This document shows positions 3,380 to 51,958 of a stretch of DNA of 64,000 bases, piece by piece. The notes below the pieces were generated by a model. It did no database searches. It was not told the origin of the DNA and saw nothing but the letters and a program-made list of their open reading frames with translations. The DNA comes from Desulfurispora thermophila DSM 16022 (GTDB lineage Bacteria > Bacillota > Desulfotomaculia > Desulfotomaculales > Desulfurisporaceae), in contig NZ_AQWN01000001.1 in the NCBI RefSeq assembly GCF_000376385.1, positions 1-64,000 of the forward strand. Reading direction: 5' to 3'. The stretch's first letter is position 1. The number at the start of each line of letters is the position of its first letter. Made by a program: the position numbers and the translations under genes.

Positions 3380-3412
3380 ATTAAAGACAACTCGGTATAG
3401 ATATAGGGTTGT

Positions 3413-3545
3413 CGGAGGCTTAATCCCTGCAGATAGGGAGCGGGGGAACCAGTTTTCGGGGTGAATCCGCCGGGGTAGTAAAATGATACCGGTGGTAGGA
3501 TGCTTATCCTTTCAATCCGAACCCGTCAGCTAACCTCGTCTGCCC
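3413..3545 (+). promoter_or_regulatory. Cyclic di-AMP (ydaO-yuaA) riboswitch
   Basis: The conserved blocks of the ydaO class occur in order: GGCTTAAT, GCGGGGGAACC, GGGGTGAATCC and, near the 3' end, the hallmark AACCCGTCAGCTAACCTCGT (about 3521-3540). The class binds c-di-AMP and usually turns genes off when the nucleotide is high. The element ends about 10 nt before the SD sequence of the aminomutase gene and no separate terminator is visible, so control may act on translation or on a terminator I could not see. Confidence 0.92.
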
Positions 3546-3563
3546 AAAGAAAGGAGTGGCATT

Positions 3564-16174: not shown

Positions 16175-16315
16175 TTAGCTGCGCGGCCAGTACATGATCA
16201 CCAGCACGCCCAGCAGGCAGATGGCTTCGCCAATCGGATCAAAACGGTCGGGGGCGATTTTGTCCACTTTCCAGCCCCAGATGATGGTGAGAAGAATTAT
16301 GTATCCTGCGGGTTG
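16175..16315 (-). pseudogene. C-terminal remnant of a YnfA-family small membrane protein
   Basis: Reading the minus strand, 46 codons before the stop at 16175 translate to the C-terminal third of the YnfA/UPF0060 family (WGWKVDKIAPDRFDPIGEA, then a hydrophobic helix and WPRS). An in-frame TGA lies immediately upstream at 16316-16318. The first two or so membrane helices are missing and there is no start codon with an SD. The 5' part overlaps the end of the CopZ-like gene in another frame, so an insertion or deletion at that junction probably removed the rest. Confidence 0.65.
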
Positions 16316-16794
16316 TCAGGAAGCAGACTTTTGATCAGATCCTGGATCACCGGGCCGCAGCAGCGGCCGGTGGGATTGTTGAGCTCACAGCGGGCGTTCT
16401 GCATGGCTCCGGTGAGCCGGGCAACTTCTTTCACTGTCCGGGCTCCCCGGCTGATGACCGCCTCGCTGATTTGTTTCCGGGTCACCCGGTTGCAGTAGCA
16501 AATATACTGGGGACAGGCCCCGGTTTTGTACCAGACCGGCACCTGGAGCTGTGATTGAAGGATGGTTTGCCCGTTCTCACTGAAATATACCACCGGGCAT
16601 GCGGGATTGCGGCAGAGGTGGTACGTCGCATCGCCCACCGGGCCGGAGAATTCCGGTCGGACCAGGTTTTGCACAGTGATAGCTTTTACACTTTCCCCCG
16701 GTTGGTGGCATGTGGGGCAGGGTAATTCGGCAACTGCCGCCCGGGCAGTGGGTGCTGTGCCGGTTCAGCAATTCGGTTTATTAATTGAAGTCAA
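16297..16794 (-). CDS. CopZ-type [2Fe-2S]/Zn metallochaperone, candidate selenoprotein with in-frame UGA
   Basis: The 125 residues from the GTG at 16674 match the [2Fe-2S] half of CopZ-like copper chaperones: CRNPACPVVYF, ICYCNRVT and NPTGRCC. The family's zinc-binding CPTC and following residues are also encoded in frame, upstream of that GTG, where no ATG, GTG or TTG exists until a TGA at 16767-16765 is crossed. Beyond it lies TTG at 16794, with GAGGTGA 7 nt upstream, overlapping the stop of the preceding gene. The full frame gives 165 residues with the N-terminus TSINKPNC-(UGA)-TGT, so the UGA sits beside a Cys where relatives, as I recall them, have Cys-rich N-termini. A hairpin suited to a bacterial SECIS follows. 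Selenocysteine insertion is an inference; sequencing error or decay of the 5' end are alternatives. Confidence 0.65.
16728..16762 (-). promoter_or_regulatory. SECIS-like hairpin after the in-frame UGA
   Basis: Starting 2 nt after the UGA, CGGCA pairs with TGCCG at the base. After an 8-nt one-sided bulge, ACTGCC pairs with GGCAGT around the 5-nt loop CGGGC. The loop begins 21 nt after the UGA and has G at its second position, within the geometry reported for bacterial SECIS elements. Confidence 0.5.
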
Positions 16795-17150
16795 CTGTTT
16801 TCACCTCGCATCTGGCTGGTAGATGGCTCTGTCTCATGGATTGCATTAAGCTTATGGGCAGGAGTATTTGGGGTATCGCACAGCTGTTGTAATTGATTTT
16901 TTAGCTTTATGTTTTCACTCTCTAAATTGCGTATGTAAATAAAACGCTTAAATTGCCACCAAATTCCCAGTAACAAGGTGGTTAAAGCTCCGGCCAGGGC
17001 CGACAACAAAATAAGCAATACTATAGAAAAACCTTCAATATGCCAAAAAAGGAGGTTAATACTAACTGGCACGGCATTTTGCAGGGCGAAAATTGTTACC
17101 ATTGCCGACAAGATTAGGGCGAAAAAGAAAAATAACTGTCCCTTACTCAA
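16791..17150 (-). CDS. LapA/YciS-like small membrane protein
   Basis: A 119-residue protein with two hydrophobic helices separated by a short loop (FALQNAVPVSIN, then IVLLILLSALAGALTTLLLG) and a charged coiled C-terminus, the pattern of the LapA (DUF1049) family linked in other bacteria to lipopolysaccharide assembly; the role in a Gram-positive is unknown. The TTG at 17150 follows GGGGAGGTG at 7-nt spacing. The longer frame to 17375 would run into the tRNA gene and is rejected. Its stop overlaps the start of the CopZ-like gene. Confidence 0.72.
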   Translation of the reverse strand: MSKGQLFFFFALILSAMVTIFALQNAVPVSINLLFWHIEGFSIVLLILLSALAGALTTLLLGIWWQFKRFIYIRNLESENIKLKNQLQQLCDTPNTPAHKLNAIHETEPSTSQMRGENS

Positions 17151-17230
17151 ACCTGAGCACCTCCCCAATGCTTTTTTATTAAGTGTAACACAATTTTTAA
17201 TATATTTTATGAGTTCTAGAAAAATAGTGT

Positions 17231-17266
17231 TGAAAAAATTAAAGAGAACGGGGGTTTGCCGTTCTC
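17231..17266 (-). terminator. Terminator of the tRNA transcript
   Basis: On the minus strand GAGAACG / CGTTCTC forms a stem just downstream of the tRNA and is followed by TTTAATTTTTTC. Confidence 0.8.
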
Positions 17267-17276
17267 CTGGTCTAAT

Positions 17277-17373
17277 TGGAGGGGAGAAGTCGGAATCGAA
17301 CCGGACTCCCACCTGGATCGCAGGCAGGCCAGCGGGTTTGCAGCCCGTGGGGGGAACCATCCCCTTTCTCCCC
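17277..17373 (-). tRNA. Non-canonical tRNA-Cys (anticodon GCA) with long variable arm
   Basis: 97 nt including an encoded CCA. Anticodon loop CTGCAAA gives GCA (complement at 17339-17341), and U at the discriminator position (base 17280) is the cysteine identity base. The architecture is odd: an 8-bp acceptor stem (GGGGAGAA/TTCTCCCC), a 5-bp D-stem GGGGA/TCCCC with a 4-nt loop TGGT, a 25-nt variable region able to form a hairpin, and a T-stem GTCCGG/CCGAC that pairs only if one C is bulged. The T-loop TTCGATT is normal. The long arm and 8-bp acceptor recall tRNA-Sec, but the anticodon is not UCA. It looks like one of the minor cysteine tRNAs reported in surveys of tRNAs with extended acceptor stems. 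Confidence 0.85.
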
Positions 17374-17593
17374 AACAGGTATTATACAGGGCAATCAATC
17401 TAATATAAATAATCTATAAGCATTATAAAAAATTTTTATATAACTATGATCCGCAATTAAATATTTATATATTTTCACGGTGCTGTACCAGGTGGCCTGG
17501 GTGGCGCCTGCGCCAGTTCTGCCAGATCCAGTTGCCTGGCGGGTTTGGTTTTGTTAAGCTGAAAGTACAGGCATGGCAGAGAGGAGAACTGGT

Positions 17594-19414
17594 TTGGACC
17601 GGGAAATTTATGGACACATCAAGGGTCTGAGCAGGAGCGATCTGGAAACGCTGCGCGGCCTTTATGCTCTGGCGGTGGACCGCGCACAGCTGGTGAGTGA
17701 GGATATTATTTGCGTGCTGGTATCGCTGACCGAAAAAATGCGGCGGGAAATAGCGGTGTTTCTCGACCGGCACGGCCGGGTGGTCAGTGTGGGCGTGGGT
17801 GATGCCGGTACGGCGCCGCTTTTGGCCAGGAGCCGCCGGCGGAGCGATTTTCGCCTGTCCGGTCTGCGCTGCGTGCATACCCATCCCGGCGGCAGCGGTA
17901 TGCTCAGTTCGGTGGATATGGCCGCGCTGCTGAGCATGCGGCTGGACGCCATGGTGGCTCTGGGGGTGCGGGATGGCCGCCTGCGGGAAGCCTTTGTGGC
18001 CATACCCGATGTCCGACAGGGTCGGCTGGCGGATGGTGGGCGAACCTATGGCCCAATGACCGCAAGGGAACTGGAAAGGTTTGATTGGCGGCGAGCGGTG
18101 GATGAGGTGGAAAAACAGCTGGGCAGAACCCCGGCGGATTTCAGGACAGGGGAACAACCGGAGAAAGCGCTGCTGGTTTCCACTGACAGTGAGGAATCGT
18201 TGGACGAACTGGCCCGGCTGGCCGAAGCGGCCGGTGCCATGGTTTTGCACAAAGTCTTGCAAAGACGGGCCAGCCCCGATGCCGCCTTCGCTATTGGCCG
18301 GGGCAAGGTACGGGAACTGGCCCTGTTGCGCCAGAGCCTGGGGGCCGATCTGGTAATATTTGATGATGAACTTACGCCCGTGCAGGCCAGGAATTTGCAA
18401 AGGGAACTGGGCTGCCGGGTGATTGACCGCACGGCGCTGATTCTGGATATTTTCGCCCGGCGGGCCCGCACCCGGGAGGGACAACTGCAGGTGGAACTGG
18501 CCCAATTGCGCTATCTGCTGCCCCGCCTGACCGGGCAGGGGGAGGCTCTCTCCCGGCTGGGTGGCGGTATCGGCACCCGGGGGCCGGGGGAGACCAAGCT
18601 GGAAACCGACCGGCGGCACATCAGGGGGCGCATTGAGGATCTGCGCCGGGAGTTGGAGGATGTGCGCCGGCACAGGCAGCAACACCGCCGCCAGAGGCAG
18701 CAGGCGGACATCCCCGTGGTGGCCCTGGTGGGCTATACCAATGCCGGGAAAAGCACTTTGCTCAACGCTTTAACCGGGGCTGATGTGCTGGTGGCCGACC
18801 AGCTTTTCGCCACGCTGGACCCCACCACCCGCCGGCTGGTGTTGCCCGAAAAACAGCAGGTTTTGCTTACCGATACGGTGGGGTTTGTGCGCAAGCTGCC
18901 CCACCAGCTGGTGGCCGCCTTTCGCGCCACCCTGGAAGAGGTGCAGCAAGCCGACCTGTTGCTGCATGTGGTGGATGCCAGCAGTGCGGATATGATGGGA
19001 CAGATGGCGGCTGTGGACAATGTGCTGCGGGAGCTTAATGCACATAACAAGAAAACCGTACTGGTTTTGAATAAAATGGATTGTCCGGTGCAGCCTGACC
19101 TGCTGGAGCAGGTGCGGGTTTCCTTTGCCGGTCCGGTGGTGGAAGTTTCGGCCCGCACCGGCTACGGTTTGGAGCAGTTGAAACAGGAAATAGCCCGGCA
19201 GCTGGATCTGAGGGGATGGCTTTTTCAAGGCGTGATCCCTTACAACCGGGCCGATTTGCTGGCTCTGGTGCACCGCACGGGCCAGGTGGAGCGGGAGGAG
19301 TACCTGCCCGAGGGGATAAGGGTGGTGGCCCGTTTGGGTGGTCGACCCGACCCGCGTATAAGACATTATCAGGACAATACCGGGTTTACCGCCGGAGCTA
19401 CAGAATCTGATTGA
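17594..19414 (+). CDS. hflX: GTPase HflX with N-terminal JAMM-like domain
   Basis: About 606 residues, clearly longer than the 400-430 usual for HflX, a ribosome-associated GTPase that splits stalled or stressed ribosomes. From about residue 200 the HflX domain is standard (GRGKVRELALL, GIGTRGPGETKLETDRR), with Walker A GYTNAGKSTLL near residue 380, DTVGFVRKLP and NKMD. The extra N-terminus carries a JAMM metalloprotease-like motif: E52, then H95-T-H97-P, S105 and D108 in exact HxH-x7-S-x2-D spacing. I prefer the TTG at 17594 (SD AGAGGAG, 8 nt) to the ATG at 17573, which has no SD. The substrate of the N-domain is unknown. Confidence 0.9.
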   Translation: MDREIYGHIKGLSRSDLETLRGLYALAVDRAQLVSEDIICVLVSLTEKMRREIAVFLDRHGRVVSVGVGDAGTAPLLARSRRRSDFRLSGLRCVHTHPGGSGMLSSVDMAALLSMRLDAMVALGVRDGRLREAFVAIPDVRQGRLADGGRTYGPMTARELERFDWRRAVDEVEKQLGRTPADFRTGEQPEKALLVSTDSEESLDELARLAEAAGAMVLHKVLQRRASPDAAFAIGRGKVRELALLRQSLGADLVIFDDELTPVQARNLQRELGCRVIDRTALILDIFARRARTREGQLQVELAQLRYLLPRLTGQGEALSRLGGGIGTRGPGETKLETDRRHIRGRIEDLRRELEDVRRHRQQHRRQRQQADIPVVALVGYTNAGKSTLLNALTGADVLVADQLFATLDPTTRRLVLPEKQQVLLTDTVGFVRKLPHQLVAAFRATLEEVQQADLLLHVVDASSADMMGQMAAVDNVLRELNAHNKKTVLVLNKMDCPVQPDLLEQVRVSFAGPVVEVSARTGYGLEQLKQEIARQLDLRGWLFQGVIPYNRADLLALVHRTGQVEREEYLPEGIRVVARLGGRPDPRIRHYQDNTGFTAGATESD

Positions 19415-51811: not shown

Positions 51812-51835
51812 TGTAATACAACAAAATATTGCCGT

Positions 51836-51918
51836 CCGGGGGAGCGCCGGCAGGGCGCTGAGAAAGGCCAGAGCCTGACCCTTTGAACCTGATCCGGGTA
51901 ATGCCGGCGCAGGGAGTG
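51836..51918 (+). promoter_or_regulatory. TPP (THI-box) riboswitch aptamer
   Basis: Carries the class hallmarks in order: GGGGAGC, GGGCGCTGAGA, ACCCTTTGAACCTGATC and CGGGTAATGCCGGCGCAGGGA. Binding of TPP should favour the terminator that follows and shut off the thi operon. Confidence 0.96.
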
Positions 51919-51958
51919 AACTTGCCACACTTTGGGCAGCAGCCGTAATCAGGGCGCA

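What the first reader, a model, noticed from the sequence alone, without database searches (positions are those of the whole stretch)
17277..17373. Unusual cysteine tRNA with 8-bp acceptor stem, bulged T-stem and long variable arm
Anticodon GCA and discriminator U mark it as cysteinyl, yet the body resembles tRNA-Sec: extended acceptor stem, 4-nt D-loop and a 25-nt variable arm. The T-stem pairs only with one C bulged. I recall a published survey describing minor Cys tRNAs of this modified type, so the class may be known, but its function is not. It sits about 480 bp from the candidate selenoprotein gene, which may or may not be chance.
Basis: partly seen in the sequence, partly recalled or inferred. 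Interest (0 to 1): 0.7.

Follow-up and report, generated by a model that had tools for sequence, protein, structure and literature searches.

The report
Selenium-linked spare cysteine tRNA (selC*)
This is a real second cysteine tRNA built like the selenocysteine tRNA; the type is already known, most likely puts cysteine where selenocysteine is encoded (a backup when selenium is scarce), and in related bacteria its gene repeatedly sits directly in front of selenium-handling genes.

Summary
In detail: window 17373..17277 (-) encodes a 97-nt tRNA with GCA anticodon, U73, encoded CCA, an 8-bp acceptor, a long variable arm and one bulged C in the T-stem. It scores as tRNA-Sec, not as ordinary tRNA. 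The genome also has a canonical tRNA-Cys, a UCA tRNA-Sec, one SelB and one CysRS, so this is an extra Cys tRNA. It belongs to the published selC* tRNA-Cys class. New here: a covariation-supported model (62 double-change cells, 0/500 shuffles); 79 related loci in 71 of 113 genomes of the same order; all 15 out-of-order GCA carriers in a 399-genome phylum sample have SelB (66% background); and strong linkage to selenium genes. In 23 of 72 U73 loci it lies directly upstream of the predicted selenium transporter seleno_YedE; others lie in the Sao (seleno)protein operon or beside selenium LysR regulators. In one family the syntenic tRNA has switched to anticodon UCA with a non-U73 discriminator, which is unexplained. 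Verdict: new member of a known kind, with new support for the selenium-backup role.

The parts
17277..17373 (-). selC*-type tRNA-Cys(GCA), 97 nt including encoded CCA
   Evidence: ARAGORN; RF01852 50.2 bits; model R1 115.6 bits (built partly from it)
17366..17373 (-). acceptor stem 5' strand GGGGAGAA (8 nt)
   Evidence: pairs with 17281-17288; 8/8 pairs, 100% of cells paired in 26 sequences, 5 pairs with double changes
17281..17288 (-). acceptor stem 3' strand UUCUCCCC
17351..17364 (-). D-arm, 5 bp with 4-nt loop UGGU
17329..17350 (-). anticodon arm, 7 pairs with one bulged nt on the 3' side; anticodon GCA at 17339-17341
17307..17328 (-). long variable arm (8 bp, 5-nt loop, plus one linker nt)
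17289..17306 (-). T-arm; bulged C at 17304
   Evidence: bulged base is C in most relatives, A in L054/L055/L060, other or absent in some
17280..17280 (-). discriminator U73
   Evidence: sequence; invariant in the 26 GCA sequences of A1
17381..17409 (-). sigma-70-type promoter-like site TTTATA-17-TATAAT; the -10 box ends 7 nt before G1
   Evidence: 10 of 12 matches; -10 box at 5-7 nt in 27 of 99 loci versus 8.3 in shuffles
17242..17268 (-). intrinsic-terminator-like hairpin just after the tRNA
   Evidence: 1.0 expected by chance in the region
16791..17159 (-). LapA-domain membrane protein (start codon uncertain)
   Evidence: Pfam PF06305, E 1.9e-12
16297..16794 (-). CopZ_Nterm_CU (Csac_0668 family) 2Fe-2S (seleno)protein, putative TTG start; in-frame TGA (Sec or Cys site) at 16765-16767
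   Evidence: 26 of 30 family hits in the order carry an in-frame TGA
17573..19414 (+). hflX, divergent neighbour
   Evidence: TIGR03156 490.6 bits

Best explanation
A selC* tRNA-Cys. The cell's single ordinary CysRS charges it with cysteine by its U73 and GCA anticodon. Its long, bulged acceptor/T-arm and large variable arm keep it off EF-Tu, so SelB carries it. SelB brings Cys-tRNA to SECIS-marked UGA codons, where the GCA anticodon reads UGA with a third-position mismatch, and cysteine is inserted at selenocysteine positions. The likely benefit is a working Cys version of selenoproteins when selenium or Sec-tRNA is short. Shown here: the anatomy, co-existence with canonical tRNA-Cys, tRNA-Sec, SelB and one CysRS, co-occurrence with SelB, and linkage to selenium genes. 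Published for a relative: SelB-dependent Cys at UGA. Inferred: charging of this tRNA, its use in this organism, and the low-selenium role.
For: U73, GCA and tRNA-Sec-like body. Covariation-supported 8-bp acceptor and bulged T-stem. Canonical tRNA-Cys and UCA tRNA-Sec in the same genome, one SelB, one CysRS. In a phylum sample 263 of 399 genomes have SelB, and all 15 GCA-type carriers outside the order are among them. Selenium linkage: seleno_YedE directly downstream in 23 loci of 22 genomes and 6 families; YedF-like TusA next; selenium-associated LysR upstream in family f8 and in Nitrospirae; SaoC-tRNA-SaoX in f16. YedE and LysR_Se were predicted selenium genes independently (PMC5322559). Published function of a relative: PMC11415595, PMC7609411.
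Against: No direct test of charging or decoding here. The window copy is not beside YedE, and this genome has no YedE hit. SelB co-occurrence inside the order is uninformative, since almost every genome has SelB (109 of 113 over cut-off). The one carrier without a true SelB hit, G110, is only 57% complete. The out-of-order carriers come from about 9 families, so they are not 15 independent events. Seven related copies carry UCA and mostly A73, which does not fit simple Cys charging.
Confidence: 0.78

Rival explanations
1. An ordinary minor Cys isoacceptor: charged with Cys, carried by EF-Tu, used at normal UGC/UGU codons.
For: GCA anticodon and U73; encoded CCA.
Against: A canonical tRNA-Cys is present. 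Conserved tRNA-Sec-like architecture, linkage to selenium genes, and a published statement that the class member does not use EF-Tu.
Confidence: 0.08
2. A sense-codon selenocysteine tRNA: serylated, converted by SelA and used to put Sec at Cys codons followed by SECIS, as reported for GCA tRNA-Sec of Aeromonas salmonicida.
For: tRNA-Sec-like body and long variable arm that SerRS could bind; GCA-type tRNA-Sec is reported elsewhere.
Against: U73 is invariant in the 26 GCA sequences of A1, whereas the tRNA-Sec genes compared here carry G73. A normal UCA tRNA-Sec is present.
Confidence: 0.05
3. Chiefly a regulatory or leader RNA for selenium operons: the tRNA-like 5' end of the yedE-yedF mRNA senses Cys- or Sec-charging state, with a translational role secondary or absent.
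For: Directly upstream of YedE in 23 loci, often 20-100 nt away; -10 box 5-7 nt before G1 in many, so the tRNA would be the 5' end of the message.
Against: Most copies, including this one, are not in front of YedE. Here a terminator-like hairpin follows it. CCA, U73 and GCA are conserved in the U73 class, which a pure leader would not need.
Confidence: 0.06

Closest known systems
selC* tRNA-Cys (Mukai et al. 2017; reviewed in PMC7609411)
   Same: GCA anticodon, U73, 8-bp acceptor, bulged T-stem, long variable arm, anaerobic Firmicutes hosts, coexists with tRNA-Sec and SelB
   Different: Bulged base is C, not the described A51a; I count 5 T-stem pairs around the bulge although the class is called 8/4; no selB* or cysS* partner genes here (the review describes selB* in Syntrophobacterales and Desulfobacterales and cysS* in Desulfobacterales)
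D. nigrificans SelB-dependent tRNA-Cys(GCA) (Vargas-Rodriguez et al. 2018, cited in PMC11415595)
   Same: Same architecture class and same broad group of spore-forming sulfate reducers
Bacterial tRNA-Sec (RF01852)
   Same: Long variable arm, 4-nt D-loop, extended acceptor, T-loop UUCGAUU
   Different: GCA not UCA; U73 not G73; bulged T-stem; 50.2 bits versus 72 for the true tRNA-Sec of this genome
Allo-tRNA
   Same: Extended acceptor and long variable arm
   Different: Allo-tRNAs carry Ser identity; this has U73 and GCA

Membership tests
selC* tRNA-Cys | tRNA-Sec-like body with Cys identity (GCA or UCA anticodon, U73) | tested here: met
selC* tRNA-Cys | 8-bp acceptor stem | tested here: met
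   8 pairs, 100% of cells paired, 5 pairs with double changes
selC* tRNA-Cys | single bulged nucleotide in the T-stem | tested here: met
   bulge at alignment column 70. Descriptions name it A51a; here it is C. C and A both occur within genus g28 (L056-L058 versus L054/L055/L060), and the review calls the bulge dispensable for charging, so base identity is not treated as defining
selC* tRNA-Cys | extra to a canonical tRNA-Cys, in a Sec-using genome with SelB and tRNA-Sec | tested here: met
selC* tRNA-Cys | charged with Cys and delivered by SelB to UGA | not testable with these tools
   published for D. nigrificans
tRNA-Sec | UCA anticodon and G73 | tested here: not met
   GCA, U73; the genome's true tRNA-Sec is at C3:66629-66722
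canonical tRNA-Cys | 7-bp acceptor, short variable loop, scores with the general tRNA model | tested here: not met
   8-bp acceptor and long arm; absent from the RF00005 hits
allo-tRNA | Ser identity on an extended 8/4 or 9/3 acceptor domain | tested here: not met
   U73 and GCA

The most novel reading that the evidence does not exclude
The selC* tRNA is part of a regulated selenium-homeostasis unit: transcribed from a promoter at its own 5' end, often as the first part of a yedE-yedF (selenium transporter) transcript under a selenium LysR, so that low selenium raises both uptake and the Cys backup tRNA. In one family the same locus has evolved a UCA anticodon and a non-Cys discriminator, that is, a further UGA-reading tRNA of unknown amino acid.
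Probability: 0.35. Interest if true: 0.6.

Novelty: new member of a known kind. Interest (0 to 1): 0.38.

Why it matters
It is a natural case where a genome keeps two tRNAs, one for Sec and one for Cys, that may compete for the same recoded UGA. The selenium-operon linkage turns the proposed low-selenium backup role into a testable prediction: the tRNA should rise with yedE when selenium falls, and Cys should then appear at Sec sites. The UCA/A73 offshoot, if charged, would be a further reading of UGA.

Tried and rejected
The family-level genome search held only the window's own genome, because the family is a singleton. Association with the CopZ-like selenoprotein gene as a conserved pair was rejected: no other case seen. 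A SECIS hairpin after the UGA at 16767 folds only slightly better than shuffles (z -1.4): not used as evidence. A dedicated second CysRS or second SelB in this genome was rejected. A universal promoter at G1 was rejected: 27 of 99 loci, clear but not general. The primary papers (gkw898; RNA Biol 2018) are not held, so I could not check whether they already report the yedE linkage; the reviews and library searches available do not mention it.

Full report
What is there. The minus strand at 17373..17277 encodes a 97-nt tRNA with anticodon GCA, discriminator U73 and encoded CCA. It matches the Rfam selenocysteine-tRNA model at 50.2 bits (gathering score 47), and the general tRNA model does not report it among the genome's 46 tRNAs. 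The fold has an 8-bp acceptor, a 5-bp D-stem with loop UGGU, a 7-bp anticodon stem with one bulged nt, an 8-bp variable arm and a T-stem of five pairs around one bulged C. A sigma-70-like site with its -10 box 7 nt before G1, and a terminator-like hairpin after the CCA, frame it as its own transcription unit.

Is the structure real? A gapped class pattern has no hits in shuffled window sequence and occurs in 32 of 113 genomes of the order. Aligning 26 distinct copies and counting pairs for the named structure gives 98.6% paired cells, 18 pairs changed on both sides and 62 such cells; none of 500 shuffles reaches any of these, and sliding the partner by one column drops pairing to about 60%. 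The structure was derived from these sequences, which favours it, but the double changes in acceptor, D-stem, anticodon stem and variable arm are direct.

Distribution. A covariance model from these copies (R1) finds 79 loci above 64 bits in 71 of 113 genomes of the order, clearly apart from true tRNA-Sec, which scores 38-56 bits. Of these, 72 are of the U73 type; seven, all in family f16, have a UCA anticodon. Seven genomes carry two or three copies. Two copies have anticodon ACA (L119, L123). The bulged T-stem base is usually C, A in a few, other or absent in others. Named carriers from the public scan include Desulfotomaculum copahuensis, a Desulfovirgula sp., an Ammonifex sp., Carboxydothermus islandicus and several Nitrospirae, in line with the published host groups.

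Is it the main Cys tRNA? No. The genome (99.6% complete) has a canonical tRNA-Cys at C2:45069-45140 and a UCA tRNA-Sec at C3:66629-66722. It has one SelB and one CysRS. So there is no dedicated CysRS as described for Desulfobacterales (PMC7609411): the ordinary CysRS would have to charge it, which U73 and GCA allow (established identity elements, cited in the same review).

Link to selenium. In the order, SelB is nearly universal (109 of 113 over cut-off), so I tested a phylum sample: 263 of 399 genomes have SelB. All 15 genomes outside the order with a GCA-type copy are among them. Ignoring relatedness, chance would be about 0.002; by the roughly nine families involved it is nearer 0.02. The stronger evidence is gene order. 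In 23 of 72 loci (22 genomes, six families) the next gene on the same strand, mostly within 100 nt, is seleno_YedE (TIGR04112, 492 bits against a cut-off of 200 for the tested example), usually followed by a TusA/YedF-like gene. In family f8 a selenium-metabolism LysR (NF040786, 291.9 bits against a cut-off of 250) precedes it, giving LysR - tRNA - yedE - yedF; a LysR match also precedes Nitrospirae copies. In f16 the tRNA lies between SaoC and SaoX of the Sao operon, whose families are named (seleno)proteins. YedE and LysR_Se were independently proposed as selenium genes (PMC5322559). With one or two YedE genes per roughly 3-Mb genome, a random site would fall that close upstream about once in several thousand (inference, not a run test).

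The neighbour in this window. The gene about 480 bp away is a CopZ_Nterm_CU 2Fe-2S (seleno)protein with an in-frame TGA at 16765-16767. It scores just under the family cut-off, but 26 of 30 family hits in the order carry an in-frame TGA, so the selenoprotein reading is well supported. The pair with the tRNA was not seen in other genomes, so this particular neighbourhood may be coincidence. This genome has no YedE hit.

How it most likely works. Published work on the D. [quoted passage not shown] a low-selenium backup role was proposed for the related CysRS*/selC* system (PMC9437257). Everything found here fits: Cys identity, SelB-type body, SelB co-occurrence, selenium-operon linkage. Charging, SelB delivery and UGA reading of this tRNA are inferred.

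What does not fit or is new. Seven f16 copies have UCA, A73 in six (G in L135), and in three no encoded CCA. Five of them (L139, L143, L150, L151, L152) are syntenic, inside the Sao operon, with a GCA/U73 copy (L089). The acceptor pairs are kept, including a compensated change in L151. U73 is a main CysRS determinant, so what they carry, if anything, is open. Many class members have a -10 box ending 5-7 nt before G1 (27 of 99 versus 8.3 in shuffles, maximum 18), suggesting near-leaderless transcription. Some others have a sigma-H-like site (9 of 99 versus 0.4).

Verdict. It is a new member of a known kind, ordinary as a find, but the selenium linkage gives the class's proposed role independent support. 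I could not check whether the primary papers already report that linkage.

Noticed in passing
L135, L139, L140, L143, L150, L151, L152 (family f16); compare L089: selC*-like tRNAs with UCA anticodon and A73 (G in L135), CCA not encoded in three; five of them sit in the Sao operon in synteny with the GCA/U73 copy of L089. Amino acid unknown.
   Followed up: partly
L119:3001-3097(-), L123:3001-3096(+): selC* tRNA-Cys copies with anticodon ACA, both directly in front of seleno_YedE.
   Followed up: no
upstream of L047, L081, L117, L119, L132, L141: sigma-H-like promoter motif (AGG-N-GAAT) about 10 nt before G1; 9 of 99 loci against 0.4 in shuffles.
   Followed up: partly
window 16297-16794 (-): CopZ_Nterm_CU selenoprotein gene with in-frame TGA at 16765-16767; 26 of 30 family hits in the order also carry TGA.
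   Followed up: partly
L211, L224, L232, L249 (Bacillota MAGs): a separate GCA tRNA-Sec-like lineage (39-49 bits with R1) that may be another origin of Cys-identity tRNA-Sec bodies.
   Followed up: no
window 3407-3558 (+) and 51828-51933 (+): c-di-AMP and TPP riboswitches (Rfam, above gathering score).
   Followed up: no
G042, G090, G091, G099, G100: genomes of the order with two or more SelB genes over the cut-off; relation to selC* not examined.
   Followed up: no
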